DNA of 64,000 bases from Oligoflexia bacterium. GTDB taxonomy: Bacteria; Bdellovibrionota; UBA1018. The stretch is taken from contig JARLHE010000037.1 in NCBI GenBank assembly GCA_031292385.1, positions 33,573 through 97,572 of the forward strand, in the 5' to 3' direction. The position numbers and the translations under genes are program-made. This document shows positions 1-63,421 of the stretch, piece by piece. Below the pieces are notes generated by a model. It was not told the origin of the DNA and made no database searches. It worked only from the letters and a program-made list of their open reading frames with translations. Every line of letters starts with the position of its first letter. Positions within the stretch are counted from its first letter, which is position 1.

Positions 1-1019
1 GAGACCAGGATTCCCTCTTCGTGAGGCGTAACCGGCACAAGCCGGCAGCCGAACGAGGCATAGCCGCCCCAGTCCGTCACGACCGATGGCAGGCCGCAGG
101 CCATGGCTTCGGCCACCGCCATTCCGTAATCCTCATCGTGATACAGGCTCAGGCTCGAAAAAACGTCGGCCCCGCAATAAGCGCCCAGCAGTTCTTTTCC
201 CTCCAGTTGGCCGAGGAAACGAACGCGCCGCGCGACGCTCTCGGGGATCCCCGAAAGGATGCGATTGATTTGCTGAAAATAGTAGCCCTGGGGAGTCCGT
301 ATGCTGAGCAGCTTCGATCCGATATCGTCGTAGCCGCCCGCGAGATAAAGATAGTCGGTGCGTCCAGCGGTTTCCGGGATCCGGGCGAACTCTTGGATCA
401 GCCGCGTGACGTTTTTCTGCAAACTTAAACGCCCTGAATATAAAATAACCCGGTCATCCGGGCCCATGCTCCAGCGCTCGCGGGCCTTTTTGCGCAAGAC
501 CGGATCGAAGCGGAACTCCTCCGGGTTCACCGGGAAAGGGAGGCTTTGCACGCATCCCCCCTCTTTGGAGAATCCTTGAATCAGCTGCTTTTGCTTGTCC
601 GAAGCGCAAATGATCCGCAGCGTCGGCAGGCGCGGGCTGTTCTGAAGCTTGGACCACTTTTTCGCGTAATAGGTGAAGTCGCCGTAGATATGGATCGCGA
701 CGGGCGGAAGCACGAACGGGTCGTCGATCGCGAGAAATCCCGCGACCAAATCGGCGGCGTGCGGGAGGTGGTCGATGAAAACGACCTGGTCGGGCTGGCT
801 TGTTTTTATTTTCAGGTAAAGATCATGGACGGGAGCGATCTGATCGTAAGTATCGAGGTCGCTCCCGAGGTTCCCCGGCAACGTGACCCACTGGACCTGG
901 AAACTCCCGGGCAGTCGCTCATAGGCTTTTTTCAGGTTCGAGGAAATAGTCCGGCAGCTCCCCCAGTCGGAGGGGGTTCCGGAGGCGACGACGATGATTT
1001 TGTTCGTCTTGAGCGGCAT
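1..1019 (-). CDS. Glycosyltransferase family 4 (GT-B), C-terminus beyond window
   Basis: The minus strand is open from an ATG at 1019 to the window edge, giving about 339 residues. The N-terminal Rossmann half includes VASGTPSDWGSC and, further on, VFIDHLPHAADLVAG. The second half has the GT4 donor-site signature: VILYSGRLSLQKNVTRLI, then YLAGGYDD, VRFLGQLEG and, near the edge, EDYGMAVAEAMACGLPSVVT, which matches the usual E-X7-E region. The family transfers a sugar from an NDP-sugar to an acceptor. It starts 10 bases after the upstream oxygenase-like gene, so it is probably the tail of the radical SAM operon. A role in glycosylating the peptide product is inference; a cell-envelope role is equally possible. 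Confidence 0.88.
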   Translation of the reverse strand, partial: MPLKTNKIIVVASGTPSDWGSCRTISSNLKKAYERLPGSFQVQWVTLPGNLGSDLDTYDQIAPVHDLYLKIKTSQPDQVVFIDHLPHAADLVAGFLAIDDPFVLPPVAIHIYGDFTYYAKKWSKLQNSPRLPTLRIICASDKQKQLIQGFSKEGGCVQSLPFPVNPEEFRFDPVLRKKARERWSMGPDDRVILYSGRLSLQKNVTRLIQEFARIPETAGRTDYLYLAGGYDDIGSKLLSIRTPQGYYFQQINRILSGIPESVARRVRFLGQLEGKELLGAYCGADVFSSLSLYHDEDYGMAVAEAMACGLPSVVTDWGGYASFGCRLVPVTPHEEGILV

Positions 1020-1029
1020 TCTTCGGGGT

Positions 1030-1701
1030 TTATTGCCTGGAGGTCAAGGGAGCGCGCCCCGCACGTTCGAGCATTTTCCTCTCGTTCATGGCTACGCGAT
1101 TGAAGATCGCCCATTCGAACATCCCGGCAAAACAAATGCGCGGAAAAGTTCCGGTATAAGGGGGAACCAGGTGCCAGACGTAGCCGGGGAAAATGAGCAT
1201 GGTGCCGTCTTCGGGGTAGACGCAATGCTGGCTGTCGAAATCCTCGGCGTAGAGAAATTCATCGGGCATCCACCGGGGATCGCTGAGCTGGACATAGCCG
1301 CTGCCGTCGTTGCTGACTCCGGCGGATGAATAATAGACCGCCGTAAAATCGCCCAGCTGATGGGCATGGATGTTTCCGTAAGTGCCGTTCATGTAAATCT
1401 GGCACCAGGCGTCTTGGATGTATTTCTCGTTTTCCGGGCCCGTGAAATCCATGTCCTTCCCGTGCGCCTTCGCGTACCGGGTGTAGCTGTAGAGAAACAT
1501 TTTCTTGAGCTGCTCGAAATCGGGTCCGCCCCAGTCCCAGATATTGTGGTTTTCGGGCGTGAGCCTGCCGAGCCGGCCTAGCTGTTCGAGCGCGAAAGCG
1601 GAAATTCGGTCATTGAATTCTTTGCCGACATTGAAGCGGATTTGCATGATCTTCGTCGCCCAAAGATCATATTCGGTGACGTTTTTGATGTGCTGTTCCA
1701 T
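1030..1701 (-). CDS. 2OG-Fe(II) oxygenase-like protein (copy 3)
   Basis: 223 aa. The cupin-type core resembles the 2OG-Fe(II) oxygenase families in which a peptide or amino-acid side chain is hydroxylated using 2-oxoglutarate, O2 and Fe(II). Visible candidate ligands are H112 and H114 in NIHAHQLGDFTAVYY, a distal H177 in FPGYVWHLVPPY, and R188 as the 2OG-carboxylate ligand. The LSDPRW strand between them is shared with the neighbouring copy at 1707-2402. The start is ATG, 5 bases after the upstream gene ends. It is the last of three related proteins in the operon. The substrate is unknown; the radical-SAM-modified peptide is the natural suggestion. Confidence 0.8.
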   Translation of the reverse strand: MEQHIKNVTEYDLWATKIMQIRFNVGKEFNDRISAFALEQLGRLGRLTPENHNIWDWGGPDFEQLKKMFLYSYTRYAKAHGKDMDFTGPENEKYIQDAWCQIYMNGTYGNIHAHQLGDFTAVYYSSAGVSNDGSGYVQLSDPRWMPDEFLYAEDFDSQHCVYPEDGTMLIFPGYVWHLVPPYTGTFPRICFAGMFEWAIFNRVAMNERKMLERAGRAPLTSRQ

Positions 1702-1706
1702 TGAGC

Positions 1707-2402
1707 TTATCTTCTCCAGTTCGGAAACTCTTGCATGTAATGCTTTTCGTCCGAGTGCTTCAGGTGATGCGGAAAATGCGCGCTCGGAAGCTTGATCGTC
1801 GTGACCATGCTGATTCGCGTGGATTTATTCACCTGCGGGGCGACCTGGTGCCAGGTATAGCCGGGCGCGATCACCATTTTTCCGGGCTTCGCCTGGATGG
1901 TGTGCTGAATATAGCTCGTGTAGCGCAGGTTGTGATCCGGCCAGCGCGGGTCGAAAATCTCGAGATCGGCCCCGTCCTCGACGTTGACCCAGTAGACGGA
2001 CGTGAAATCCGAGCCGCTGTGGTTGTGCAGCTTGCGCTCGTGGTGAAGCACCCCGGCCGGAATGCAGAAATACCAGATATCGATGATGTCTTTCATTTTC
2101 ATTTCGGGAGCGTTGTCGAAGGCGCGAGGCAGCTCGCCCGGGCGGCATCCGATATCCGAGTCGTACATTTTCAGATGATCGCGAAAGGCTTCCAGGAGCC
2201 GCTCGGCGATTTGGTGCGCGGCCGGCGTATCCAGGCTGAAGACATAGTGGGGCTGATCGCCGATTTGGTTCTTCAGTGCGTTGATCTGCTGCGTGCAATC
2301 GAAGTAGAGCTGCGCATTGAGGTCGGTGACGTCACTGAATTCGTAAATGCCGACGTTGGTGGGCCAAAGCTTCAGTTCTTCTTTTTTTGAAAACAGGCTC
2401 AT
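1707..2402 (-). CDS. 2OG-Fe(II) oxygenase-like protein (copy 2)
   Basis: 231 aa from the ATG at 2402, which overlaps the upstream stop as ATGA; a longer reading frame reaches 2444 but would overlap more. Candidate metal ligands are H126 and H128 (LHNHSGSDFTSVYW) and H185 (APGYTWHQVAP), with R196 for 2-oxoglutarate. The strand EIFDPRWP is nearly identical in form to that of the 1030-1701 protein. The N-terminal DLNAQLYF motif recurs as DMNAQLFF in the protein at 3061-3675, so the three are diverged paralogues rather than one gene repeated recently. Predicted cytosolic tailoring enzyme of the operon; substrate not determinable. Confidence 0.8.
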   Translation of the reverse strand: MSLFSKKEELKLWPTNVGIYEFSDVTDLNAQLYFDCTQQINALKNQIGDQPHYVFSLDTPAAHQIAERLLEAFRDHLKMYDSDIGCRPGELPRAFDNAPEMKMKDIIDIWYFCIPAGVLHHERKLHNHSGSDFTSVYWVNVEDGADLEIFDPRWPDHNLRYTSYIQHTIQAKPGKMVIAPGYTWHQVAPQVNKSTRISMVTTIKLPSAHFPHHLKHSDEKHYMQEFPNWRR

Positions 2403-3061
2403 ATTTTTTCTATATTCTCCAACCTTGGGTCTTTTGGGTACCAATATCGCTTGAGCTTTAATATACGCATATTCCGCGCTGATTCGTAAGTGACTCCGAA
2501 AAGTTTCTGCGTTCCCGCAGGCTCTTCCCCCAGCTCGGGGAGAGGGGTGGGCGAATTCTGACCAAAATGCGCGTACACTTGATTCAGGTCTTCGTGGAAG
2601 AAATAGAGATCACGGAAGTTCTCGTGGCGCGGGCTTCCGAAATGCCGGCCGATGCCGAATCGGTGGGCCAGCCGCCAGCCCGCGGGCATCGCGGGGAGCG
2701 GATAGCGCCAAAACTCGCTATCGTAGATTTTGTAATAGCAATGCCCTGTTTTCAGCCCGATTTTAAGCGTGTAGCAATCAGTGCAATGGACTTCGTCCGG
2801 GACGCCGATCCGTTTTTTCAAATCGGAGTCGGGTACTCCTAGAAACGTAATGGACACGACGTCTTCAAAATAGGATCTTCCGTCTTGCTCGGTCAGACCA
2901 ACGATATCGGCTTGGTTAAAGACGTCCGAGTCCAAAAGTTCGGGTCGCGTGCTCACCGCCAGTGAAATGAGGTAGCGCCCTCTCACGTGCCGGGCGGAAT
3001 AAGTGTTTTCGCTGACGCCCTGCGCATCCAAACAGATTTCATTGGCTTCAAGGTCGAGCAT
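2399..3061 (-). CDS. Orphan protein, paralogue of the 4271-4963 product
   Basis: 220 aa. I do not recognise the family. It is clearly homologous to the plus-strand protein at 4271-4963: both share GVSENTY near residue 20, a FWRYPLPAMPAG / WWKYPLPPLPVG motif, RD(L/I)YFFH, and a C-terminal ILKLKRYWYP / VIKLKRYVHP motif. The ATG at 3061 overlaps the previous stop as TGATG; a TTG one codon upstream is also possible. It ends in an ATGA overlap with the next gene. Flanked on both sides by 2OG-oxygenase-like genes, it probably acts with them, for example as a partner or leader-binding protein. That role is inference only. Confidence 0.75.
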   Translation of the reverse strand: MLDLEANEICLDAQGVSENTYSARHVRGRYLISLAVSTRPELLDSDVFNQADIVGLTEQDGRSYFEDVVSITFLGVPDSDLKKRIGVPDEVHCTDCYTLKIGLKTGHCYYKIYDSEFWRYPLPAMPAGWRLAHRFGIGRHFGSPRHENFRDLYFFHEDLNQVYAHFGQNSPTPLPELGEEPAGTQKLFGVTYESARNMRILKLKRYWYPKDPRLENIEKI

Positions 3062-3675
3062 CAAGTTTTCTCAGAGGGCCAATAAAATGCGAGTTTCGCG
3101 TTTCTTGCGACTTTAATGCCTTGAATCTTGCAGTTCGAGACGACGCAAAGACGGTCTTCGGTGGCGTGAAAAGCTTTCACGTCATGCGGGAATTCACCGG
3201 GAAGAATGACGAGGAGCCCTTGGTAAGGCTGGATTTCAATATTCTCCCGCCGGACGAGCTTTGGGTTCCAGAGCCGCAGCAGTCCTTGATTGGGTGACGT
3301 GTTGATGTAGTAGACCAGAGTAAAATTAACGCCAAGGTGAATATGCGGATACAGAGGGCCCCGTCCCGGCGGCGGAACCAAAACATACGAGGTGTCTTCG
3401 TAATTGAGGTCACTCGCTATTACATCGGGTTTATAAAGACGCGCTATCGATAAAAAGGCCTCTTGGAAAAGATAGTGGAGCTTTTCGGTAGCCTCGTCGT
3501 TCCAATCCCAGAGTTTCCTGTCGAAACTCAGGTAATATTTGCGGGTCTCCTGCGCGTAGATTCGAGCCGAGAAAAAGAGCTGCGCATTCATGTCCTCGCA
3601 GTCGGTGACTTCGCCGAAGAGGCAGGTCTTCCCCCAATAGCGCTCGAATCGGTGGTTCAAGACAGGAGTTTTCAT
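3061..3675 (-). CDS. 2OG-Fe(II) oxygenase-like protein (copy 1)
   Basis: 204 aa from ATG at 3675. Candidate ligands are H111 and H113 in YPHIHLGVNFTLVYY, H164 in LPGEFPHDVKAF and R175 in RLCVVSN. The aromatic VYY strand after the HxH motif is shared by all three copies. The N-terminal DMNAQLFF motif links it to the copy at 1707-2402. It is the first gene of the minus-strand block left of the plus-strand insert and is separated from the divergent GTG start at 3706 by only 30 bases, so its promoter must lie inside that gene or further away. Fe-dependent oxygenase activity is predicted from the fold; the HxH (rather than HxD) pair could also indicate a non-standard cofactor geometry. Confidence 0.78.
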   Translation of the reverse strand: MKTPVLNHRFERYWGKTCLFGEVTDCEDMNAQLFFSARIYAQETRKYYLSFDRKLWDWNDEATEKLHYLFQEAFLSIARLYKPDVIASDLNYEDTSYVLVPPPGRGPLYPHIHLGVNFTLVYYINTSPNQGLLRLWNPKLVRRENIEIQPYQGLLVILPGEFPHDVKAFHATEDRLCVVSNCKIQGIKVARNAKLAFYWPSEKT

Positions 3676-3705
3676 TTGAGCTGACGCCAGGGTAAGCTAG
3701 AGCGC

Positions 3706-4281
3706 GTGACAAGACAAGGGCTTCAGCTCGACTTCCGGCAATTTATCCGGGATTCCGAACGATTTTTGGAAATTCGCACACCTCGGATTATTGATGGCGC
3801 GCTCATGCGGCGCTGGCCCGAGAGCATGCTGGTTCATGCGGACGGCGGGATCGTGCGGCCCGAGCCCACGAGCGAGCATCACCGGAGTTTTCTTCAGCGG
3901 ATGCACGAAGACGCGGGTTATTTCTCGAAACCCTTCTACGCTTTTGAGATCGCCGACTGCGCTCGCAACTCGAATTGCTTCGAGGTGGATGTTTCCCGGC
4001 CCGTCCGCGAATACGAGCTGGCTTGCTTCAATTCCTATAACGCGTTGATGGAGCCGAACTTCGACGCGCTTTCGGCCTTTCTTTCGCGACTGGGTTTGAC
4101 AATCGAGTATCACGAACTCCAGGGCACCGACGCCGAGTCGGATGTGGAGATCCTCGATGCGCGTATCGGCGTGATTTTCGGCCATTGGGAAGTACGGCCA
4201 TTTTTGAGCCATCTCCATAGCGAGCTTCAATTGCGCCTCACAACCATCGAATATTGGATCGGCAAAAAAAATGCGGAATGA
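3706..4281 (+). CDS. Orphan protein of the radical SAM locus
   Basis: 191 aa from a GTG at 3706. No family recognised. It contains paired cysteines in EIADCARNSNCFEVDV and a mixed alpha/beta composition without signal peptide or membrane segment. It overlaps the following gene by 11 bases on the same strand, which supports translation of this frame rather than the long antisense frame. These two genes form the only plus-strand segment inside the minus-strand operon. The exact start is uncertain: no strong ribosome-binding site precedes the GTG, and an internal ATG at about residue 34 exists. The function is unknown; association with peptide modification is by location only. Confidence 0.6.
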   Translation: MTRQGLQLDFRQFIRDSERFLEIRTPRIIDGALMRRWPESMLVHADGGIVRPEPTSEHHRSFLQRMHEDAGYFSKPFYAFEIADCARNSNCFEVDVSRPVREYELACFNSYNALMEPNFDALSAFLSRLGLTIEYHELQGTDAESDVEILDARIGVIFGHWEVRPFLSHLHSELQLRLTTIEYWIGKKNAE

Positions 4282-4963
4282 AATTCAAAATCCGGGAGTT
4301 TTCGATCCTGAAGCGAGCAGCGTGACCATCGATGCCGGCGGAGTGAGCGAAAATACCTATCATCCGGTGCGCTCGTTCCGGCATCCGCCCGTGCAGATGA
4401 TCCTGGCCGCCTTGTACGATGCGTTTCCGGAGACTCTTCGCGAAGATATCCAAACCTGGGAGATGGTCGGGATGACGCTCGCCAACGGCGATAATTATCG
4501 GGCCGACACCATCAGCGTCTTCTATGCCGGGGGACCGGCGTCGGAAACGCTCGATCGGTTCGAGACTCCCCAGGGCAATTATGTCAATGCTCACACGATT
4601 AAATACGAGCTCGCCACGCGGAAGAAGTATCTCAAAGTTTTTGACGGTGATTGGTGGAAGTACCCCTTGCCGCCATTGCCCGTGGGCGCCCAGTTCGGCG
4701 AGCATGGCGGCATTGGCCTTCACTATAAGAACGCCGTGCTCGAATCCCGGCGGGATATTTATTTTTTCCATCGGGACGAAAACGCGGTGATCGAATGGTG
4801 CCGCGGGCAAGCGGTCGATTACCCACTCTACGCCGGCGATCCCGGAGGCCCGATCTTACGTCTTTACGGCCTGGCTTTTGATCAGCAAACTCTGCGGGTC
4901 ATCAAGTTGAAGCGTTACGTGCATCCTTGGTCGCTGGATATCCAGCACGGAAGGCGGATGTAG
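4271..4963 (+). CDS. Orphan protein, paralogue of the 2399-3061 product
   Basis: 230 aa. It shares with the 2399-3061 protein the motifs GVSENTY, an AHTIKYEL / CYTLKIGL strand, YPLP(A/P)(M/L)P, RDIYFFH and IKLKRY, so both belong to one unrecognised family duplicated inside this locus. The start overlaps the previous gene by 11 bases. Its 3' end overlaps the convergent radical SAM gene at 4902-5975 by 62 bases, an unusually long tail-to-tail overlap. No catalytic motif can be named. The repeated presence of the family next to oxygenase-like genes suggests a scaffold, adaptor or unrecognised enzyme; undetermined. Confidence 0.72.
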   Translation: MRNEIQNPGVFDPEASSVTIDAGGVSENTYHPVRSFRHPPVQMILAALYDAFPETLREDIQTWEMVGMTLANGDNYRADTISVFYAGGPASETLDRFETPQGNYVNAHTIKYELATRKKYLKVFDGDWWKYPLPPLPVGAQFGEHGGIGLHYKNAVLESRRDIYFFHRDENAVIEWCRGQAVDYPLYAGDPGGPILRLYGLAFDQQTLRVIKLKRYVHPWSLDIQHGRRM

Positions 4964-5975
4964 CCGCGTTCCACCGGTGGAGCGCTTCCCTGGGCGCGAT
5001 GCAGTTTTTTGTGTCCAAATAGTCCTGAAGCTTGAAGAGGCCGTTTTTTGCGCAGGCGCCGGTAAAAGCGCAATCCACGCAATCGGTTTTTTGGTCCAGT
5101 CCGAGATAGGACTCCATCATGACGGTCTTTTCCCAGGTTTCGAATTCCTCGACTTTCCAGTCCTTCACCGGAATATGAAAATCCTCGCAAAAGCTCACAA
5201 GCGGGCTGTACAAAATGGGCGGCCAATACCATTGGCCATTGCGATAGGCGTAGTGACGGCTGAGGCCGTCGCGCTGCGAGCCGTAGTAGAAGTTCAGCGC
5301 TTTCGCGTCTTCGCCGTTTACGGCCCGGTCGAAATTTCGATTGAGGCGTTCGATCGCCTGCAATAAGCGCCGTTCGGAGACATGGGCGCCGCGAGCGACG
5401 CTGAACGTGTGATAGGGCTTGCGTCCGAGAATCCTGAAAACCGAATCGCTGACTTGCTTGAGGTCGAACTCCTGTCCGACGAATTCGGCGTTCAACAAGG
5501 GGTGGGGGAATGGATCATGCGGAAAGCGGCAAAGGCCGAGGAATCTATCCCGTTTTCGGCGAAGCAGCTCGAGCCGTTCGGGATCGCCCAGGGCGAACGG
5601 ATCGATCACGTGAAAAAAATTGATCCGACGATCCGCCATGGCCGAACTCAAATAATCCGCCCATTCCTCGGCCGAATCATCGAGAAACGTGGTGTTGAGC
5701 AGCGTGGAGCGGAACAGGCCTTGGAGCTCTTTGAACCTTCTCTGCTCGAAAACCTCGCGCGTGTTGCTTGCGGTCATGAAGTCGGTGGGACCGATCTCGA
5801 AATGATCGAGCACATAACCTTGGCGGCTGAATTCCTTCATCAAGGCAATCGTGCGATCGAGATCTTCCGGTGCCGCCCAGCCGAGCTGGGCGGTTTTCTC
5901 CACTCCGCAACCGCCGCAAGCCCAGCGGCAGCCGTGCAAGAGATCGAGGATGAGGTCGAGGTGAAACGGGCTCAT
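4902..5975 (-). CDS. Radical SAM protein, GPTD subfamily (1)
   Basis: 357 aa from the ATG at 5975 (ATGA overlap with the upstream stop; a longer frame to 6119 is ignored). The CX3CX2C cluster motif CRWACGGC is at residues 16-23 and would bind the 4Fe-4S/SAM centre. Where most peptide-modifying radical SAM enzymes have GGE, this one has EIGPTDF at about 60-66. The C-terminal region has WYWPPILY and the pattern CX2CX5CX16C followed by IAP, a likely auxiliary Fe-S ('twitch'-like) site. It is the last of eight adjacent radical SAM genes. Predicted radical peptide maturase; the bond made is unknown. Confidence 0.88.
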   Translation of the reverse strand: MSPFHLDLILDLLHGCRWACGGCGVEKTAQLGWAAPEDLDRTIALMKEFSRQGYVLDHFEIGPTDFMTASNTREVFEQRRFKELQGLFRSTLLNTTFLDDSAEEWADYLSSAMADRRINFFHVIDPFALGDPERLELLRRKRDRFLGLCRFPHDPFPHPLLNAEFVGQEFDLKQVSDSVFRILGRKPYHTFSVARGAHVSERRLLQAIERLNRNFDRAVNGEDAKALNFYYGSQRDGLSRHYAYRNGQWYWPPILYSPLVSFCEDFHIPVKDWKVEEFETWEKTVMMESYLGLDQKTDCVDCAFTGACAKNGLFKLQDYLDTKNCIAPREALHRWNAATSAFRAGYPATKDARNAST

Positions 5976-7054
5976 GGGTTTGCTCTCATGCCCCGCCCGC
6001 GGAGGCGGTACCCGTCGAAGGCTCTGCGTGGCGCGATGCACTCGCGGGTCTCCAGCGCTTGCGCAAGCTGCAAAATCCCCTGTTGCGCGCATTGGGAAAG
6101 ATGATCGCAACTCGCGCAATCTTCTTGCCGCTCGGCGACCGCGTATTGGGAAACCAGGCTTTTGGCCTCGAACTCATCGATGGCCCGCGCGGTCAGCTCG
6201 CCCGGCAATTTGAATCGCTCGTCGTAATTGACGAAATGACCATAGAGAACGGGAGGCCAGTACCAGCTGCCGCTGCGCCAGGCAAAGGCTTTGTTCGTGG
6301 GCTTGAGCTCGTTTCCGTACTGAAAATGCGGATCACAGTCGACACGGTCGTAGACCCAGTGATTGAAAATCGAATTGAGCCAGTGGATATCCTTGAGGAT
6401 CAGCGCCGAATGGGCCGTTAGATCGTCCTTACGCGAGCTCGAGATCGCGTGCCACGGACGGGATTCGAAGCTCTTCACCATTTCAGCGGTGATATTCAGG
6501 ATCTCCCTGAGCAGGCTGTTGTCTTTTTTGGCGCTGTTCGGCTGGCTGTTGAGCACCGGCTCAAAACGCGTGGGCAGCTCGAGCGTGTTTTTGAAGATCT
6601 CGACTCGCGCGAGGATTTCGGCCATTAACTCCGGATTGTCGATCTTGGTGGGTTCGATCACGAGGTAGAAATATATTTTTTTCCGTCCGAACAGATCCCG
6701 AAGCGTCTTGGCCCATGCTTGATAATCATCCCGGTTGCCGGCCCCGGTCAAAGTGGTGGTGAAATAAAGGATGTTGAATTGGCGGCTGAGCTCGGCAAAT
6801 CCAGGAGACGCGAGCAGCTCCTTGGTATTCACTGCGGTGGTGAAGTCGGTGGGACCGACCTCGAGGTGATCGAGGATAAATCCCGAATCCTCTTTCAAAG
6901 CATGGATGTTTGAGATGATCTTGGAGAATTCGGCTTCGGTCGGGATCGACTGACCGGATTTGGTCACGCCGCAGCCCCGGCATTGGCCCTGGCAACCGTT
7001 GAGCACGTCGAAAATCAGGTCGAAATAAGGAGGGCTCCAGGTATGAATCGCCAT
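5972..7054 (-). CDS. Radical SAM protein, GPTD subfamily (2)
   Basis: 360 aa. The SAM-cluster motif CQGQCRGC is at residues 21-28 and EVGPTDF replaces the GGE region. The C-terminal WYWPPVLYGHFVN strand and the CX2CX5CX16C-IAP tail are shared with its downstream neighbour, to which it is most similar among the five GPTD paralogues. It starts 1 base after the preceding stop and overlaps the next gene by ATGA, so it is translationally coupled. Predicted to initiate radical chemistry with 5'-deoxyadenosyl on a peptide substrate, with one auxiliary cluster. Divergence between the copies argues for distinct target residues rather than gene dosage (inference). Confidence 0.88.
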   Translation of the reverse strand: MAIHTWSPPYFDLIFDVLNGCQGQCRGCGVTKSGQSIPTEAEFSKIISNIHALKEDSGFILDHLEVGPTDFTTAVNTKELLASPGFAELSRQFNILYFTTTLTGAGNRDDYQAWAKTLRDLFGRKKIYFYLVIEPTKIDNPELMAEILARVEIFKNTLELPTRFEPVLNSQPNSAKKDNSLLREILNITAEMVKSFESRPWHAISSSRKDDLTAHSALILKDIHWLNSIFNHWVYDRVDCDPHFQYGNELKPTNKAFAWRSGSWYWPPVLYGHFVNYDERFKLPGELTARAIDEFEAKSLVSQYAVAERQEDCASCDHLSQCAQQGILQLAQALETRECIAPRRAFDGYRLRGRGMRANP

Positions 7055-7055
7055 A

Positions 7056-9987: not shown

Positions 9988-9991
9988 GTCG

Positions 9992-11062: not shown

Positions 11063-12101
11063 GCAGGGCCTCGTCGAAAAACTCCTTGATGAAACACGAT
11101 GCCTTCTGCTCGCGCCGGGCCCGATCCGCCTGCACGAAGCAGTGGAGGCCGCAACGATTGAAGTGAGAGCAGCTCAGGCACCCCTGCTCGTCGATGAACT
11201 TCAAGGCCATCTCGCTGATGGAAAAGCGGTCGAGCGGGGTTTTGAAGTCGGAGGGGCGGTACGGGAAATAGCGGCAAGACGAAATCGTATCGTTCGCGAG
11301 CACGGTCAGGCGGTTCAGCGAACAGCACTTCACCTCGTTGAATTCCTGGTTCAGCCAGCGGCGGATCGGCTCGACGTTCGGGTAATTTTTCGCCAGAAAC
11401 TTCCAGGCGCGGAGGTTATCCTCGTCGGACGGCGAGAACAGATCCTGCTGTTTGAGATCGGGGATGTAATATTCGAAAACCACCGGAACCCGCTGGTAAA
11501 GCCAGTCAAAGAGAGAATCGCGCTGTTCGATCATCTTGTCGATGCTGAGCCGGTGAAGAACGACTCCAACCAGCCGGATACGCTCGCGCAAGCGCTCGAC
11601 ATTCGCTTTGAAGAGCTCGCGCTGCTGGGCATTCCAGTTGCGCCCCACGAAATCGAAGCTGGTCGCGAGCTGCGCGGGACCGAGCTCGGCGCTGATCCGG
11701 TCCAAAAGGCTCTCCACGCGCCCGTATTTCTCGAAAATCAGGTTCGTCGTGAACATGAAGCGAGCGGTTTTTCCGTGAGCGTCGCAATCCTCGCGGAGGC
11801 GGCGGGCCAGCGCGAAGAGGTTTTCGAAGTGCTCGTCCGAGAAATGGTCCTGGAAAATCTCGCCGCCCATCAGGTTGAATTTGAAGTCCTTGCCCGGATG
11901 GTCGCGCATATAGTCTTTGACCAGATCCGCCTTGTTCATGAGGCTTTTCAGGCTGGCTTGCTCGAGCGAGGCGCGGTGGTCCTGCGAGCAGAAGGCGCAT
12001 CGCAGATTGCAGTTCTCGAAGAGCTGCATTTCCACTTCGACAAGATCGTATTCTTTCTCTTTCAGGAGATGGGCTAAAATTCGATCTTTCTGCGTGAGCA
12101 T
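11055..12101 (-). CDS. Radical SAM/SPASM protein
   Basis: 348 aa. An N-terminal extension of 30 residues precedes CNLRCAFC (31-38). NLMGGEIF is the canonical GGE strand. The SPASM region comprises KCCSLNRL, SSCRYFPY, then CLSCSHFNRCGLHC and a final KASCF, providing ligands for two auxiliary clusters. It is most similar to the protein encoded just upstream (12105-13238): both have MGGE followed by F, a TNLIF strand and CGL(H/G)CF in SPASM, so the two are a tandem duplicate pair. Three bases separate the genes. Probable peptide maturase of the operon. Confidence 0.9.
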   Translation of the reverse strand: MLTQKDRILAHLLKEKEYDLVEVEMQLFENCNLRCAFCSQDHRASLEQASLKSLMNKADLVKDYMRDHPGKDFKFNLMGGEIFQDHFSDEHFENLFALARRLREDCDAHGKTARFMFTTNLIFEKYGRVESLLDRISAELGPAQLATSFDFVGRNWNAQQRELFKANVERLRERIRLVGVVLHRLSIDKMIEQRDSLFDWLYQRVPVVFEYYIPDLKQQDLFSPSDEDNLRAWKFLAKNYPNVEPIRRWLNQEFNEVKCCSLNRLTVLANDTISSCRYFPYRPSDFKTPLDRFSISEMALKFIDEQGCLSCSHFNRCGLHCFVQADRARREQKASCFIKEFFDEALHG

Positions 12102-12104
12102 GGC

Positions 12105-13238
12105 TTACACACTCATTCCGTCGATTTTCTGATAAAGTTTCCGGAACAGGCAGGTGTCCATCTTGGGCCGCTTATCGTAATCGTGCAGCAGGAAGCACCC
12201 GAGCCCGCAGTTATCGAAGTACTCGCATTGCAGGCATCCCATGTTCTCCACGAAGCGCCCCTGCATGTTCCCGTTGTCGAAGTTATAGGGCGTTCCGCCG
12301 AAATCGCCGAGCGTGCGCTTGTCGACCAGAATGCGGCAACGGCCCACCGTCCCGTCCGGCTGCACGATTTGATCGGCCCGGCAGGACATTTTTTGGGGTC
12401 TTAGGTCGAACATGTCCTGAACCGGGCCGCTTTTCGGGAAATGCTCGATGAGCCAGCTGAAGGCTTCGAAAAGCTCTTGGTCGGACGGGCTGTAGCTTTC
12501 GGCGTTGTGTTGGGGCGAGAAATAATCGAAGTAGCAATAGAGCCCTCGATTATAAAGGCTTTTGAGATAGTCGATGGTCGCGCTTTCTTCCGACCTTTTG
12601 CCGAGCATGATCTCGACATTTGGCTTCGTGAGCACGGTCGAGATCATCTTGATCGAGGGGAAGAACGTTTCCAGGTTTCTTTTGAAGACCTCGAGCGTCG
12701 CTTTGTTGAATCGGCCGGAAAAGTCGTAGCTCACGCAGATCGGGACCTCGTGGCCGTGGCGCTTGAGCTGTTCCAGTAGATTCGTTACGCGCTCGGTTTT
12801 TGAAAAGATCAGGTTCGTCACGAAGTGAAAATGCGCGTATTTCCCTCGTGCACGGATTCCTTCGGATACTTTGATCACGAATTCGAAGTATTTTTCGAAG
12901 ACCTCGTCGGGCACTTCGTCCATGAACAGCTCGCCGCCCATCATATTTACCTGATAGCCGAGGTACTGCGAGCCCAGCCGGTCGACCTGCTTCAGCAGGC
13001 TATGTACCTTGCCTAAGATCCCGTCGATCCCCGTCCAATCGTCGTGCTTTTGGTAGCAGAACCCGCACTGCAGGTTGCATCTTTCGAAGAAATTGATGAA
13101 AAACTCGCCCTCGTCGTTCATCTTCCGGCGCAAAGCGACTTCGGCGAACGAGCGGAAGCCGAGCTCCCGCTCATCGGGCTTCTTTTCATCCGTCCATCTT
13201 CGAGCGCTGAAATCATCGGGTCGGGTTCGTTTCGTCAT
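12105..13238 (-). CDS. Radical SAM/SPASM protein
   Basis: 377 aa, the longest of the operon's radical SAM enzymes because about 50 residues precede the cluster motif CNLQCGFC (54-61). VNMMGGELFM is the GGE strand; FVTNLIFSKTERV is shared with the downstream paralogue. The SPASM cysteines appear in MSCRADQ, GRCRIL, CLQCEYFDNCGLGC and DTCLF. The basic, Asp/Glu-rich N-terminal extension may contact a leader peptide, but no RRE-type fold can be asserted from sequence alone. Start overlaps the stop of the upstream orphan gene (ATGA). First of the eight-gene radical SAM run. Confidence 0.9.
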   Translation of the reverse strand: MTKRTRPDDFSARRWTDEKKPDERELGFRSFAEVALRRKMNDEGEFFINFFERCNLQCGFCYQKHDDWTGIDGILGKVHSLLKQVDRLGSQYLGYQVNMMGGELFMDEVPDEVFEKYFEFVIKVSEGIRARGKYAHFHFVTNLIFSKTERVTNLLEQLKRHGHEVPICVSYDFSGRFNKATLEVFKRNLETFFPSIKMISTVLTKPNVEIMLGKRSEESATIDYLKSLYNRGLYCYFDYFSPQHNAESYSPSDQELFEAFSWLIEHFPKSGPVQDMFDLRPQKMSCRADQIVQPDGTVGRCRILVDKRTLGDFGGTPYNFDNGNMQGRFVENMGCLQCEYFDNCGLGCFLLHDYDKRPKMDTCLFRKLYQKIDGMSV

Positions 13239-13975
13239 GAATCCATCCAGATCAGTTGCTTCAACACGTCATTTCGCCGCAGGCGATAGCAGTTATAGAA
13301 ATAGGAGATCAAAAAAGGATTCACATCGCGGATTCGGTGAAAAATCTCCGAGCCTTGCGGAATCGCCATATCCAGGTCCAGGAGCTCCTGCAGGCCCATT
13401 TGCGGCCGGCTCGCGTAGTTCAGCTGAAACCGGACGACGGGATTATGTCCGCTCGGGTCGCGCAGCCAGCCGATTTCGAAGAAGTAGCGATGTTTGAGCT
13501 TGAGGAGCTCGATCTTTTGGCCTGGGTCCACGGAGCTTTGCCAGGAAGGGTTCAGCGTCCAAACCCATTCGGGATCGATCACCTGCATCCTCACGTCGGG
13601 GGTGTCGACGTTTCCGTTCAGGAAGACGTTCTGCAAGTAGATGCGCCGAAGCTCCTGAAGCTCGTCCTCGATCATGGTTTGATCCAGGACGTTTTTGATG
13701 TGCGTCTCGAAGGCCTCGCGACCGGGCCACCGCGGGTCGGCCAAAAAGCTTGAAAGCTGGAACTCCAGACGCGGCTCGGCGGGAATTTTGATGCCGGAGA
13801 TCGGGGTTTCCCAATAGTCGTCAAACGCGGCTTGGCTGTCGAGCGCGGGTAGGTGCTCATTGAGCAGGTAAAGCCGGTACTGTTGGTTCAAGCAGGCGAG
13901 GTGGTAGGCCGTCGATTTTGATAAGCCCGGAAAGCCGGTTTTTAGGCTTTGAACGAATGCCTGATCAAACTTCAA
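13235..13975 (-). CDS. Orphan protein between precursor and radical SAM genes
   Basis: 246 aa, no family recognised. No signal peptide, membrane segment or clear cofactor motif. It has an aromatic-rich middle (DPEWVWTLNPSWQ) and a helix-rich C-terminus ending in a VLKQLIWMDS stretch. It overlaps the upstream gene by 11 bases and the downstream radical SAM gene by ATGA, so it is co-translated with both. Sitting directly after the putative precursor and its neighbour, it is a candidate for precursor recognition or for assembling the modifying enzymes. That is a positional inference. Confidence 0.68.
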   Translation of the reverse strand: MKFDQAFVQSLKTGFPGLSKSTAYHLACLNQQYRLYLLNEHLPALDSQAAFDDYWETPISGIKIPAEPRLEFQLSSFLADPRWPGREAFETHIKNVLDQTMIEDELQELRRIYLQNVFLNGNVDTPDVRMQVIDPEWVWTLNPSWQSSVDPGQKIELLKLKHRYFFEIGWLRDPSGHNPVVRFQLNYASRPQMGLQELLDLDMAIPQGSEIFHRIRDVNPFLISYFYNCYRLRRNDVLKQLIWMDS

Positions 13976-14717
13976 GCCGCAAATCCTCTGGCCTGACTCG
14001 TTTTTCCATCAGGGCGACGAGCATTCCGAGCAGGCTGTTATTGGGATTGTAGAAAAAGTGGAAAAGATTCTTTCCGCGGAACATCTGCTCCCAGAACTGC
14101 CGCTTGAAAAAAGCCGGGGCGGATTTCGGAGCGGTCGAAAAATACGACTCGAAGAAGCCCGGGACGTAAAACAAGTCGACCACGTTCTGTCCGACGAAAA
14201 AAGGATCGTCGATGACCTCGGCCCCCTCTTGAGGGGCCTCTCCGAAAGCGCTGCGGTAGGCCTGGGTCGTGGTGATCGCGTAGAGCGGAAGGCTGTCGCA
14301 GAAGCGCTGCCAATTGCCGATCAAAGCCGGGTTTTTTTCGATGAACAGTTTGAGCTCTTCTTTGTTGAAAATAGTCGATTTGAACTCCAGGTCCGTTCGG
14401 TCCTGCTTCGAGAGAATCAGGGCGTCGGCTACCGAGAGCGTGAAGCTCGGCACGGAGAACATGTTTCGGCTCTCCATATAGCACTTCAACATCTCGAATT
14501 TTTCGTCGAGCGAAACATCGGGCGTAAAGCGAATCTCGCAAGGAATGTCGAGATTGGACAGGTAAATCAGCAACGACTTTCCTTTGAGCTGGCTCTCGGC
14601 GTAATTGATGACGAAAATCTTGGACTTATCGAGAAAAAATTCTCGCATCACGTCCATTGAAAATGGCGCCATGACTTCCCGGACTTTGGAAGGATCGGTT
14701 TTCGATAAATCGAACAT
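13965..14717 (-). CDS. Orphan protein directly downstream of the putative precursor
   Basis: 250 aa from ATG at 14717, preceded by a strong AGGAGA site inside the end of the precursor gene, so it should be well translated. No family recognised. Sequence features: KIFVINYAESQLKGKSLLIYLSN early on, a SVPSFTLSVADAL middle, and an aromatic C-terminal half with LFYVPGFFESYF and GKNLFHFFYNP. No Walker, radical SAM or protease motif is visible. Its fixed place beside the precursor suggests an essential partner such as a chaperone or leader-binding protein; unproven. Confidence 0.68.
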   Translation of the reverse strand: MFDLSKTDPSKVREVMAPFSMDVMREFFLDKSKIFVINYAESQLKGKSLLIYLSNLDIPCEIRFTPDVSLDEKFEMLKCYMESRNMFSVPSFTLSVADALILSKQDRTDLEFKSTIFNKEELKLFIEKNPALIGNWQRFCDSLPLYAITTTQAYRSAFGEAPQEGAEVIDDPFFVGQNVVDLFYVPGFFESYFSTAPKSAPAFFKRQFWEQMFRGKNLFHFFYNPNNSLLGMLVALMEKRVRPEDLRLEV

Positions 14718-14720
14718 ATC

Positions 14721-15035
14721 TTATCTCCTCGACCGGCTCTTGGGAGGCGGAGTGTAGCAATTCGAATGGCAGATGAAATTTGAGTTGCAAACGAAACCCG
14801 TTATTGCCGCCGGGGCGTCGTTTTGCTCCGGCAGGCGGACTAGAGGTGAAAGGGGCGAGCCGCCCTGATGCGCCTGTCCCGCATAAGCCGCGAAGATCGC
14901 CGCAAAGCGATGTGCTGCCTTCAAAGATTCTTGGGGAATATTGATCTCGTCCGCAACCGGCGCTTTCGCGCCACCGGTCAAATCGCTTACCAGTGTTTGC
15001 CACGGCGTAAGCTGATTCCTCTCTGGCTCGTTCAT
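14721..15035 (-). CDS. Putative RiPP precursor peptide with Cys-containing core
   Basis: 104 aa. The first ~78 residues are charged and Ala/Gln-rich, as in leader regions, with a helix-prone ESLKAAHRFAAIFAAYAG segment. After APAAITG the composition changes abruptly to GFVCNSNFICHSNCY (80-94) followed by TPPPKSRSRR. The three cysteines (83, 89, 93) lie in a degenerate repeat of the form V/I-C-N/H-S-N. Small size, leader/core asymmetry, a Cys-Asn-Ser core and position between two radical SAM-encoding parts of one operon fit a RiPP substrate, for example a thioether or C-C crosslinked peptide. No known precursor family is recognised. A GGAAAG site precedes the ATG. Confidence 0.72.
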   Translation of the reverse strand: MNEPERNQLTPWQTLVSDLTGGAKAPVADEINIPQESLKAAHRFAAIFAAYAGQAHQGGSPLSPLVRLPEQNDAPAAITGFVCNSNFICHSNCYTPPPKSRSRR

Positions 15036-15050
15036 ACGGACTTTCCTTTT

Positions 15051-16166
15051 CTACTCGGTTCCAAAAAAATCACTTAGAACAGTTTTATATTCGTCGATAT
15101 TTCTCTGTTCTTTGAGGTAGGTCATCAGCTTTTTAGGCGCGGCACAGATGTCTCCCTGCCATGCCAGCTGATTGCAGTCTCCGTTACAGACGTCGTAGAC
15201 GGGGCAAGTGTAGCAAATCGGATTTCGATTGGATTCGCATTGGATGTTTTTGATGCGCCCCGGGGAAAAAAGCAATTTGTGAATGCTGTCATCCAAAGTT
15301 CCGAAATGGTTATCGGGCGCGTGATTGGGGCAGCCGCCGATCGTACCGTCGGCATTGATGGTAAAGATCTTCTGCTCGCAGGCGCGGCAACGGCAGCCGC
15401 TATGCGTCGAATAAGTCAGGGAAGTCAAAATACTGTTCAAAAACAGGTTCTGCGGTCCCCATTCCCAAACCTTGTATTCAACCGTCTGCTGGTACATCCG
15501 GAAAAACCACTCATCCAGCTCCTGATTTGACGGCGTGATTGCGGGATTTAGCCGGGCATTTCCATTTGGAGTGATGCGCTCCAGGTGTAAATACGATGCG
15601 CCGACCTCCGCTGCCTTCCGAATGAGCTCAATGGGTTCGTTTTTGATGATGTCGCGGCCCAGGCTCACCATCATCGTCACGGTGAAGCCGAGCTCTTGGG
15701 TGAGCGTTTTTACGTTCTTGGTCCAAAGCTCTTCTTGCTTGGGGTTAGCAAAACGAATCCCGCGATCCCAGCTGGTGGCGATGTTTTTCTGGAAGCACTC
15801 GGTCATGAAATCGATCTTTTCTTGATCCAAGTTGTATACGAGATTTGTTGTGGTGCTCCAGGTGAGATTGGGCCAGAGGTCTTTGGTGTAAGTCCAAACC
15901 TCTCTCATCTTGGAAACCGGCGCCAGAAAGGGCTCGCCGCCATGAAAAACAATCTGGGCCTGCCGGAAGTGCGGGATCGCCGATTTCAGGCGGTGAAGCC
16001 AGTCGATGGTCTTAGTCGTGTCAAAAATGTTCTTCTTGCCGGATGATCCGCTCGTGAAGCAATGAGCGCAGTTCAGCTGACAAGTGTCCGTTGTTTTCAG
16101 GTAGATCATCAGATCCGTCATCGGAGAGCGGGAATATGGAACTGATGGGTTCGACTGAGCGCTCAT
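15051..16166 (-). CDS. Radical SAM/SPASM peptide maturase, operon head
   Basis: 371 aa from the ATG at 16166. An uninterrupted frame runs back to 16976 but lies antisense to a well-supported gene, so it is not used. CQLNCAHCFTSG is at residues 29-40, IVFHGGEPFL is the canonical GGE strand, and the SPASM domain shows CRCRACEQ, IGGCPNHA, CYTCPVYDVCNGDC and DICAAP. The protein resembles SPASM peptide maturases that install thioether or C-C crosslinks. It is the first gene of the minus-strand operon and lies 15 bases before the precursor gene, the usual place for the primary maturase. It is therefore the best single candidate to act on that peptide. Confidence 0.9.
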   Translation of the reverse strand: MSAQSNPSVPYSRSPMTDLMIYLKTTDTCQLNCAHCFTSGSSGKKNIFDTTKTIDWLHRLKSAIPHFRQAQIVFHGGEPFLAPVSKMREVWTYTKDLWPNLTWSTTTNLVYNLDQEKIDFMTECFQKNIATSWDRGIRFANPKQEELWTKNVKTLTQELGFTVTMMVSLGRDIIKNEPIELIRKAAEVGASYLHLERITPNGNARLNPAITPSNQELDEWFFRMYQQTVEYKVWEWGPQNLFLNSILTSLTYSTHSGCRCRACEQKIFTINADGTIGGCPNHAPDNHFGTLDDSIHKLLFSPGRIKNIQCESNRNPICYTCPVYDVCNGDCNQLAWQGDICAAPKKLMTYLKEQRNIDEYKTVLSDFFGTE

Positions 16167-16205
16167 ATGTATGATTTTTCCGTGAAAAAAACATATATCC
16201 AATGA

Positions 16206-16234
16206 TTGCCCATAGCAAGATTTTCTTGGATACT
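16206..16234 (+). promoter_or_regulatory. Possible sigma70-type promoter for the plus-strand pair
   Basis: TTGCCC at 16206-16211 and GATACT at 16229-16234 are 17 bases apart, upstream of the ATG at 16257. An AAGGGGA ribosome-binding site lies about 9 bases before that ATG. On the other strand TTGCTA and TATGTT also have 17-base spacing toward the operon start at 16166, so this 90-base gap is the likely divergent control region of the locus. Confidence 0.35.
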
Positions 16235-16256
16235 CGCTTTTAAGGGGACAATTTTC

Positions 16257-17042
16257 ATGAGCCTGACAGAGACGCGGCGGGATTCGATCATCCATTCGAC
16301 GAAATCGGCGGGAAACAACCCTCCCGTTTATTTTTGGCCAGAGGGAAGTACGCTTCCCGTCTATTTTTGGAATGAAGAAGATCTGGAGATCCGCGAAAAA
16401 ATTATCGCGCATATCACGGCCGAGACGCGCGCGTTGATCCAAGGCCTTCATTCGAGAATGAAAATTCGTCGAATCGAGTATCCGTCGATCGTGCCTTTTT
16501 CGGACCTGCGCGACCGGCCCCACGAGGCGTGGCGCCTTGCTGGAACCGATCTGGCCTTGAGCACGGGTGAAGGCGAGGGCGGTTGCGTCCCGTTTCTGCG
16601 GGAAGTGATGAAAGAATGGACGCCGGAAACGCTTCCGGTTTCTTATCAATATCAGAGTAAAAACTTCCGGTCGGAAAACCCGCGCTATACGGGGCCGTTT
16701 CGCTCGCTCGAGTTCTGGCAGCTCGATTGGGATTGTTACTGGGTGGCCGATCAAGTTCGATTCGCTCCCGAGGAAACCCAGGTTTTTTCCACAATTCTTG
16801 AGCCCATCATCGGACCGACTTACATGAAGCCGGAGCCGGAGCAGACGAAGGATGGGGCCTGGAGGCTCAACTTCGACATCCTCTCCGATGTGACGGATCC
16901 CGCCGTGGAAGTGGCTGGATACAGTACGCGCAGCCAGCAGCCTCCTTTCGTCGAGTGGAAGGGGCCAGAGCTTCACGGTTTCAACATCAGTTATGGGATC
17001 GACCGCCTGGTGACCGCTTATAAGCTTCTGAATCGTCGATGA
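16257..17042 (+). CDS. Class II aminoacyl-tRNA synthetase-like catalytic core, stand-alone
   Basis: 261 aa. The sequence matches the class II synthetase fold in order: a helix EIREKIIAHITAETRAL near the N-terminus, motif 2 as NFRSE followed by RYTGPFRSLEFWQLDWD (the FRxE...RxxxF consensus), and motif 3 as GFNISYGIDRLV near the C-terminus. It is closest in feel to ThrRS/ProRS/SerRS-type cores but has no anticodon-binding or editing domain and is about half a synthetase in length. Stand-alone class II cores elsewhere activate amino acids for carrier proteins, EF-P or natural products. Here it is coupled by ATGA to a radical SAM gene, suggesting that it adenylates an amino acid or peptide carboxylate. 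Substrate unknown. Confidence 0.75.
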   Translation: MSLTETRRDSIIHSTKSAGNNPPVYFWPEGSTLPVYFWNEEDLEIREKIIAHITAETRALIQGLHSRMKIRRIEYPSIVPFSDLRDRPHEAWRLAGTDLALSTGEGEGGCVPFLREVMKEWTPETLPVSYQYQSKNFRSENPRYTGPFRSLEFWQLDWDCYWVADQVRFAPEETQVFSTILEPIIGPTYMKPEPEQTKDGAWRLNFDILSDVTDPAVEVAGYSTRSQQPPFVEWKGPELHGFNISYGIDRLVTAYKLLNRR

Positions 17043-18109
17043 ATTACGAAACCCAGGGCGTTCGAATCGTTATCGACTGTTTGCGCGATTGCGACTGGAA
17101 ATGCCCAGGATGCTTCGTCGAGCGCTCGATGAAAAAAGAGTTCGACGCTCATGACAAGATCATCTCGCTTTACGAAGAATGCAAAGCGCGGGGAACGGTC
17201 GAGCCCTATTCGTTGACGATCGGTCCCACCGATGTCTTCGCTTCGACCAATAAAATCGCGTTTTTCGGCAATCCGAAAACACGCAAGATGTGCGGCTATG
17301 TTCCCGACCTGGCGATGACCACGACGCTCCTGGGCGAGGACGGGCGGTACGACGAGCTTTTGGAGATTTTGGACGATTACACGAACAAGCTCGTACTCGT
17401 GGTTCCTTTGAATCACCGTCAGATGCGGAATTCCAAATACGTCGAGGTCCTGCTGAAGCGGGGCGAGTACATCCGCAAAAGAACCCGCAGGGCGGTTTAT
17501 TTCGATCCAATCTTCAATATCACGGATAATAAAGAGTTCATGGATCTGGATGTCGACTATTGCATCAAGTTCCTCGACCGACTCCAGCCGAACGCCGACG
17601 TGGAGTTCGCTTTCGGTTTTACCCGGCAAACCGGCGTCAATAACCGCCTCGTCGCGGAACATCTGCAGGCTTTCGCGCGTTTCATCGACTCGAACCATCG
17701 TCAAGGAATCATGTTCCCGCAGTTCAGCGAGGCGACCCTGAAGCGGGACTGGAAGAACATTTATCTTTCGCTGCTTTGGCGCGAAGGCGAGTGGCATTGG
17801 TTGTCGATGATGTACGCCGATTTCCTGATCAACTACGCCGAGACGACGAAAATCCAGTTCAACAACCTGGATGATCTCCAGAATATCTTCCTGCAGAAGG
17901 TGAATAGCCAGTACTCGCTCCAGCAGGAATGCAATGAATGCGAGTTTTTCAAAAACTGCTCATGGAGCTTGATTCCCGCCTTCATGGACGTGTTAGGCGA
18001 AAAAAATTGCATCATTCCCCGCGAGCCCTACGTCGATTTCGTGAGGTATCACAAGTCGGCCTCGGCGATCGGCTTGTACGCCAAATCCGGCGAGCCGTTC
18101 TGGGATTGA
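17039..18109 (+). CDS. Radical SAM protein, GPTD subfamily (5), divergent strand
   Basis: 356 aa. CDWKCPGC is at residues 18-25, LTIGPTDVFAST replaces the GGE region, and WHWLSMMYADFLIN matches the conserved aromatic strand of the family. The C-terminal CX2CX5CX16C spacing is exactly that of the four minus-strand copies. Its closest relative here is the 7056-8066 product. The gene begins in an ATGA overlap with the aaRS-like gene and ends 12 bases from the convergent ynfA. This pairing suggests a two-enzyme sub-pathway: carboxylate activation plus radical modification (inference). Confidence 0.88.
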   Translation: MNYETQGVRIVIDCLRDCDWKCPGCFVERSMKKEFDAHDKIISLYEECKARGTVEPYSLTIGPTDVFASTNKIAFFGNPKTRKMCGYVPDLAMTTTLLGEDGRYDELLEILDDYTNKLVLVVPLNHRQMRNSKYVEVLLKRGEYIRKRTRRAVYFDPIFNITDNKEFMDLDVDYCIKFLDRLQPNADVEFAFGFTRQTGVNNRLVAEHLQAFARFIDSNHRQGIMFPQFSEATLKRDWKNIYLSLLWREGEWHWLSMMYADFLINYAETTKIQFNNLDDLQNIFLQKVNSQYSLQQECNECEFFKNCSWSLIPAFMDVLGEKNCIIPREPYVDFVRYHKSASAIGLYAKSGEPFWD

Positions 18110-58334: not shown

Positions 58335-58429
58335 CTTTCAAATTTGTCGTTGTCAGCTTCCTGATCTTGGCGGGTCCCGAAGCTGATCTTTCAACCTGAA
58401 CCGGAGCTGCTTTGCAGCGGCTCCTGGCA

Positions 58430-58459
58430 GGCACTTCTCCATTCTTAAAGAGAAGTGCC
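58430..58459. repeat. Perfect 10-base inverted repeat before the parA fragment
   Basis: GGCACTTCTC and GAGAAGTGCC are separated by ten bases, 31 bases before the ATG at 58491. It could be an operator for the parA transcript or an attenuator. A second dyad (GCTGC/GCAGC) sits just upstream. Confidence 0.6.
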
Positions 58460-58487
58460 GAGCCCGTCAATCCTGAATGGAGAATAA

Positions 58488-63421
<4,934 letters not shown>

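What the first reader, a model, noticed from the sequence alone, without database searches (positions are those of the whole stretch)
1..18109. Very large radical-SAM peptide-modification locus
Ten radical SAM genes, one putative precursor, three 2OG-oxygenase-like proteins, an aaRS-like core, a glycosyltransferase and several orphan families lie in 18 kb, mostly with overlapping or near-abutting ends. RiPP loci normally have one to three radical SAM enzymes. Seen: gene content and coupling. Known: SPASM/twitch radical SAM enzymes next to small peptides usually modify them. Inferred: one heavily modified peptide product.
Basis: partly seen in the sequence, partly recalled or inferred. Interest (0 to 1): 0.96.

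Follow-up and report, generated by a model that had tools for sequence, protein, structure and literature searches.

The report
New peptide class, twelve radical enzymes
A bacterial genome from the predator-rich phylum Bdellovibrionota carries twelve predicted radical enzymes around one short gene whose protein tail they likely modify, and 16 other genomes of that phylum carry a matching tail gene with related enzymes, which points to a likely new class of modified peptide.

Summary
Confirmed and extended. The 18 kb hold ten Cx3Cx2C radical SAM (rSAM) type genes. On the same contig the locus runs about 10.5 kb further left, with two more (12 in all), a second glycosyltransferase and three more oxygenase-like genes. 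The 104-aa ORF at 14721-15035 is a RiPP-type precursor candidate. The next gene's family (13965-14717) occurs in 17 of 368 genomes of the phylum (Bdellovibrionota, one of them matching Peredibacter starrii). All 17 carry exactly one ORF ending [SA]R[GS]RR behind a Cys-His-rich tail, often CHxxCHxxCHGSRGRR; shuffled tails give about 0.3 per set. Partners track it: GPTD rSAM 12 of 17 versus 0 of 351; a 150-aa protein 17 of 17 versus 1 of 351; a 195-aa protein beside pilin-like genes 15 of 17 versus 5 of 351. Three of those five extra loci hold an unrelated CxC-tailed precursor candidate with six rSAM-type genes each. Best reading: a new RiPP class whose leader presents a CHxx core to several rSAM maturases (seven in eight loci, twelve here) plus oxygenases. 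Bond chemistry, product and role are untested. Main weakness: the window's own precursor matches the others by tail motif and gene position only.

The parts
14721..15035 (-). precursor candidate, 104 aa, tail VCNSNFICHSNCYTPPPKSRSRR
   Evidence: tail class present once in each of 17 of 17 genomes with the 13965 family; RBS-like AGGAAAG before the ATG; no sequence relative of the whole protein found
13965..14717 (-). u13965, marker family of unknown function, starts 3 bases after the precursor
   Evidence: 17 of 368 phylum genomes; confident model without a clear PDB match
13235..13975 (-). orphan u13235, probably a short relative of the c3 family (about 360 aa) of other loci
   Evidence: hhalign 85%, E 6e-6 for the single comparison; no HMM hit in the other 16 loci
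15051..16166 (-). rSAM/SPASM, 15051 type
   Evidence: 49-55% identical in five named loci
12105..13238 (-). rSAM, 11055 type (second copy)
11055..12101 (-). rSAM, 11055 type
   Evidence: 40% identical in G084
9992..11062 (-). GPTD-family rSAM
   Evidence: model
8974..9987 (-). rSAM/SPASM, 8974 type
   Evidence: 53% identical in G084
8063..8977 (-). rSAM, 8063 type (GTG start inferred)
7056..8066 (-). GPTD-family rSAM
5972..7054 (-). GPTD-family rSAM
4902..5975 (-). GPTD-family rSAM
17039..18109 (+). GPTD-family rSAM
16257..17042 (+). class II aaRS-like core, free-standing
   Evidence: PF00587 15.3 bits, cut-off 29.3; no PDB sequence hit; not in the other 16 loci at E <= 1e-5
3061..3675 (-). 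2OG-Fe(II) oxygenase-like
   Evidence: PF13759 29.0 bits, cut-off 27; HxH...H conserved
1707..2402 (-). 2OG-Fe(II) oxygenase-like
   Evidence: PF13759 33.4 bits
1030..1701 (-). 2OG-Fe(II) oxygenase-like
   Evidence: PF13759 45.2 bits
2399..3061 (-). SENTY orphan family, copy 1
   Evidence: 33% identical to copy 2; one relative in G280
4271..4963 (+). SENTY orphan family, copy 2
3706..4281 (+). orphan, 191 aa
   Evidence: no Pfam match; no hit in other loci
1..1019 (-). GT4-type glycosyltransferase, N-terminal part; gene ends at L002:17692
   Evidence: PF00534; 45% identical to L002:12893-15280

Best explanation
The locus encodes one small protein whose C-terminal Cys-His-rich tail is predicted to be modified by the twelve predicted radical SAM enzymes encoded around it (ten in the window), likely together with oxygenases of the Fe(II)/2-oxoglutarate kind. 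Inferred mechanism: the leader, probably with u13965 and the 150-aa family uL10127 as docking partners, presents the core (in many loci CHxxCHxxCHGSRGRR) to a series of SPASM/twitch-type maturases; each abstracts a hydrogen and installs a cross-link (thioether or carbon-carbon) or another change at Cys, His, Ser or Asn; oxygenases then hydroxylate the core, and in this genome a glycosyltransferase cassette may add sugar. Shown here: the conserved precursor tail, gene co-occurrence, and rSAM identity by motif, profile or model. Inferred: which residues change, the order of steps, leader removal. The linked pilin-like genes suggest, without proof, that the product works at the cell surface.
For: u13965 in 17 of 368 phylum genomes; 17 of 17 carry one ORF ending [SA]R[GS]RR after a Cys-His tail, 17 of 3380 ORFs examined, against 0.325 per shuffled set and 0.01 with a preceding C[HN]. 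GPTD rSAM 12 of 368, all among the 17; uL10127 18 of 368, all 17 plus G168. GPTD model aligns with RiPP maturases. Operon-like packing. Oxygenase genes recur though of different subfamilies.
Against: The window's own precursor has no BLASTP or profile match to the other 16 and no relative in 5.8 billion proteins. GPTD enzymes are missing from 5 of 17 genomes. No leader peptidase or exporter was recognised, though not every ORF was scanned. No expression or product data. Profiles of the four other rSAM types overlap, so type labels are best-score only.
Confidence: 0.72

Rival explanations
1. The tailed protein is not the source of a free peptide but a surface or structural protein whose tail is modified in place and stays attached, for example as part of a pilin-like fibre.
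For: Leaders are long (about 150-220 aa in the other loci); the c1 family beside an S74-type prepilin is in 15 of 17 system genomes and 5 of 351 others; no protease or exporter recognised.
Against: The precursors show no obvious signal peptide by eye; the strongly conserved part is the short C-terminal tail, as in RiPP cores.
Confidence: 0.17
2. The region merges unrelated pathways: a smaller RiPP system (15051, precursor, u13965, 11055, 8974, 8063 types) and a separate rSAM/oxygenase/glycosyltransferase pathway with another substrate.
For: Oxygenase/SENTY genes were seen only here and in G280, the glycosyltransferases and aaRS-like core only here; polysaccharide-export-type genes flank the locus.
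Against: GPTD enzymes lie inside the precursor operon here and occur only in genomes with u13965; uL10127, a system marker, sits inside the left-hand cassette (L002:10127-10576).
Confidence: 0.08
3. The product is a metal-binding peptide (metallophore or redox cofactor) rather than a weapon or surface element.
For: Repeated Cys-His tails would suit metal binding (inference from the sequences).
Against: Some tails have a single Cys with His-Ser repeats and others one PPP spacer, so there is no fixed ligand set.
Confidence: 0.1

Closest known systems
SPASM/twitch radical SAM RiPP maturases (anSME fold kin: SuiB, CteB, ChlB, SkfB; the name CteB is recalled)
   Same: Cx3Cx2C, later Cys set, overall fold of the GPTD model
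   Different: No window enzyme reaches the cut-off of a full-length named maturase family; GPTD stands where GGE-type motifs usually stand (recalled)
His-Xaa-Ser system (HxsABCD)
   Same: His-Ser-rich tail in one locus (G198); weak HxsA match for 1 of 15 precursors, E 0.0082; 8974 and 15051 resemble HxsC and HxsB
   Different: 32.1 against 267.9 bits and 28.2 against 370 bits; different tail and gene set
Darobactin/dynobactin maturases (DarE, DynA)
   Same: 8974 and 15051 score best against these among named models
   Different: 49.3 bits (DynA, cut-off 450) and 37.5-37.6 bits (DarE 650, DynA 450); no similar precursor
Multi-rSAM RiPP loci such as 'Cluster 115' of PMC9062424 (3 to 5 rSAM, Asp-Cys motif; passages seen)
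   Same: several rSAM enzymes with one Cys-bearing precursor
   Different: 7 rSAM genes in eight loci and 12 here; CHxx/SRGRR tail; u13965, uL10127 and c1 partners

Membership tests
RiPP biosynthetic locus (general) | encoded precursor with leader and a conserved C-terminal core, next to the modifying enzymes | tested here: met
   17 of 17 genomes with u13965; for the window's own gene by tail motif and position only
RiPP biosynthetic locus (general) | modified peptide product | not testable with these tools
   needs mass spectrometry
RiPP biosynthetic locus (general) | leader peptidase and exporter (common, not universal) | tested here: inconclusive
   none among the ORFs scanned with Pfam; not every ORF was scanned
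SPASM/twitch radical SAM enzymes | Cx3Cx2C cluster motif | tested here: met
   ten of ten window genes
SPASM/twitch radical SAM enzymes | partial TIM barrel plus C-terminal auxiliary Cys domain | tested here: met
His-Xaa-Ser system | rSAM pair above the HxsB/HxsC cut-offs | tested here: not met
   28.2 of 370 and 32.1 of 267.9 bits
Darobactin/dynobactin | maturase above the DarE/DynA cut-off | tested here: not met
CXXX-repeat peptide family (TIGR04115 maturase) | maturase above cut-off | tested here: not met
   11055: 15.6 of 350 bits
Class II aaRS (16257-17042) | catalytic core model above its gathering score | tested here: not met
   PF00587 15.3 of 29.3 bits

The most novel reading that the evidence does not exclude
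Bdellovibrionota build radical-armoured surface peptides: unrelated precursor classes (CHxx...SRGRR and CxC...GCHY) are each modified by batteries of six to twelve radical SAM enzymes and then displayed on, or delivered by, a shared c1/prepilin appendage, giving a chemically modified fibre used to attach to or attack prey.
Probability: 0.25. Interest if true: 0.96.

Novelty: new variant of a known kind. Interest (0 to 1): 0.87.

Why it matters
If right, this is a RiPP class with an unusually high number of radical SAM enzymes per precursor (seven in eight of the loci, twelve here), an rSAM subfamily (GPTD) that Pfam and NCBIfam models largely miss, and at least three protein families of no known function tied to it. 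It is testable now, because one carrier contig matches Peredibacter starrii, which has a complete genome. It would let the division of labour among many radical enzymes on one short core be dissected and, through the linked pilin-like genes, offers a possible chemical basis for surface structures in a predatory phylum.

Tried and rejected

Papers: ten searches; no listed title describes this system, but two lists were cut (12 of 134, 10 of 19). Seen: listings with abstract starts; passages of PMC9062424, PMC8067016 (RiPP named as one cluster category in Bdellovibrionota; its Table S4 not seen) and PMC11656739 (no occurrence of 'radical' or 'Peredibacter').

Rows left out: A9 holds 15 of 17 precursors (G177, identical to G171, and G257, found later, are missing); its G084 row is only the last 53 residues and its G279 row starts at an inner Met, so saw those two in part. 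A10 holds 29 of 33 GPTD copies (three G177 copies and a truncated G141 copy dropped). A19 holds 10 of 11 c1 copies (G177 dropped). A14 joins two groups (c4, c20) by my choice, 18% identical. In some searches the tool scored only part of the candidates in many genomes, so counts per genome are lower bounds. A sixth hit (Streptomyces orinoci, 26% over 190 residues) was not studied.
Full report
What was checked. The window is contig C4:33573-97572 of a 3.39-Mb genome in 62 contigs. Open frames, translations and family scans confirm ten radical SAM (rSAM) type genes in 1-18109, three PF13759 oxygenase-like genes, a glycosyltransferase, two 'SENTY' orphans, an aaRS-like core, further orphans and a 104-aa ORF. 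Twelve genes from 16166 down to 4902 lie on the minus strand and overlap or nearly abut, in the order 15051 rSAM, precursor, u13965, u13235, 12105, 11055, 9992, 8974, 8063, 7056, 5972, 4902. A divergent pair (16257-17042, 17039-18109) faces it.

The locus is larger. The stretch to the left on the same contig (L002) carries two more GPTD rSAM genes (L002:8510-9550, 10551-11597), three more oxygenase-like genes (aligned), a 149-aa gene (uL10127, L002:10127-10576), a second glycosyltransferase 45% identical to the first and a gene that looks methyltransferase-like by eye only. That makes 12 rSAM genes in about 28.6 kb (C4:23109-51681). Two more rSAM genes (20361, 21381; PF04055) lie just beyond and are not counted.

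Finding relatives. The precursor finds only itself in 5.8 billion proteins. A GPTD profile found one syntenic locus, G084, among 97 genomes. A profile of the two u13965 proteins then found the family in 17 of 368 genomes of the phylum, own genome included. P0017, with a longest contig of 4,153,408 bases like G195, is named Peredibacter starrii. The phylum is Bdellovibrionota by this kinship.

The precursor class is conserved. Of 3380 ORFs of at least 40 aa in the loci examined, 17 end in [SA]R[GS]RR, one per genome with u13965. Tails include ACHSNCHSNCHGSRGRR (G084), TCHGSCHGSCHGSRGRR (G127), VCHSSCHSSCHGSRGRR (G121), YCHGNFPPPCHGSRGRR (G171, G172, G176, G177), WCHSSHSSHSSHSSRGRR (G198), YCHSNHCSHSNHGSRGRR (G138); the window's is VCNSNFICHSNCYTPPPKSRSRR. 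Shuffling the last 40 residues gives 0.325 hits per set, 0.01 if a preceding C[HN] is required. The other 16 precursors form one BLASTP network at E <= 0.01, run without composition correction and in part through the core only. The window's precursor has no hit there and no profile match; its claim rests on tail motif, position (3 bases before u13965; directly upstream of u13965 also in seven other loci) and an RBS-like site.

Partners. GPTD: 12 of 368 genomes, all among the 17. uL10127: 18 of 368, all 17 plus G168, where it lies with four other system genes at a contig end and no tailed ORF was seen. Fisher p 6e-19 and 2e-28; the genomes are related, so these overstate independence. Four rSAM types (15051, 8974, 8063, 11055) recur; labels are best-score choices within one superfamily. 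rSAM counts in the first stretch fetched: 12 (G000), 7 in eight loci, 5 or fewer in eight (G164 only 2, G197 1); four of these eight gained members on second contigs. In five loci one of the seven has Cx6Cx3C, and one of G141's seven is a truncated copy. B12-type rSAM genes add one in G121, G164, G280 (one scanned) and G279. Oxygenases differ by lineage: JmjC_2 type in 10 of 17 (one member scanned), 2OG_Oxy_3 type in G121 and G164 and, below the Pfam cut-off, G197, PF13759 type here and, by profile only, G280. None was recognised in G084, G141 and G279 (a few ORFs scanned). A family of about 360 aa (c3) is related to the c4/c20 group (97%) and probably to window 13235 (85%).

A link to the cell surface. 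A 195-aa family (c1; no Pfam match in 10 of 10), beside a gene with a prepilin motif and an S74 chaperone domain (one representative scanned), is in 20 of 368 genomes: 15 of the 17 (not G000, not G198) and 5 others (p 1e-20). In 13 of the 15 it lies on the same contig within about 10 kb of the system. Three of the 5 others (G098, G096, G219) hold a different locus with six Cx3Cx2C genes each and a precursor candidate of another kind, such as ...DCICNTDCACNAVCTCHNDCGCHY; these three match one another and not the SRGRR precursors nor any NCBIfam family. G278 has four Cx3Cx2C genes and no recognised precursor; in G146 none was seen in the 11 kb fetched. The window's genome has no c1 hit but has three genes that look prepilin-like by eye directly before L002:8510, one of which groups with the S74 prepilins by BLAST.

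Interpretation. Shown: anatomy, co-occurrence, tail conservation, rSAM assignment. Inferred: leader-directed, stepwise radical modification of the core, oxygenation, and glycosylation here. Not known: bond type, product, protease, export, role. RiPPs with rSAM maturases are a known kind; no named family fits and ten paper searches listed no description, so I rate it a new variant (new class) of a known kind.

Noticed in passing
L057:6809-7318 (-), L058:12832-13425 (+), L060:9389-9850 (-): A second precursor class with CxC-rich tails (e.g. DCICNTDCACNAVCTCHNDCGCHY), each in a locus with six Cx3Cx2C genes and a c1 gene.
   Followed up: partly
L044:5561-6505 and kin in L047, L048, L049, L050: The 8063-type enzyme has a changed cluster motif, Cx6Cx3C in place of Cx3Cx2C, in five genomes including the Peredibacter starrii match.
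   Followed up: partly
L002:1672-2484 and window 19497-20261: An ABC ATPase and an ABC-2 permease of polysaccharide-export type lie on either side of the locus, some 36 kb apart, with other glycosyltransferase genes, as if the locus sat inside a polysaccharide region.
   Followed up: no
20361-21377 and 21381-22679 (+): Two further radical SAM genes of another type just outside the locus.
   Followed up: no
L002:5905-8455 (+): Three genes that look prepilin-like by eye directly before the left-most GPTD gene.
   Followed up: partly
16257-17042 (+): Free-standing class II aaRS-like core with motif 2- and motif 3-like stretches by eye, seen only in this locus of the 17.
   Followed up: partly
L052:79-4017: G168 holds 8974-, 8063- and 15051-type rSAM, JmjC_2-type and uL10127 genes at a contig end, but no u13965 hit and no tailed ORF in 16 kb.
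   Followed up: partly
58412-63421 (+): A 1669-aa open frame in the A+T-richer right end of the window.
   Followed up: no
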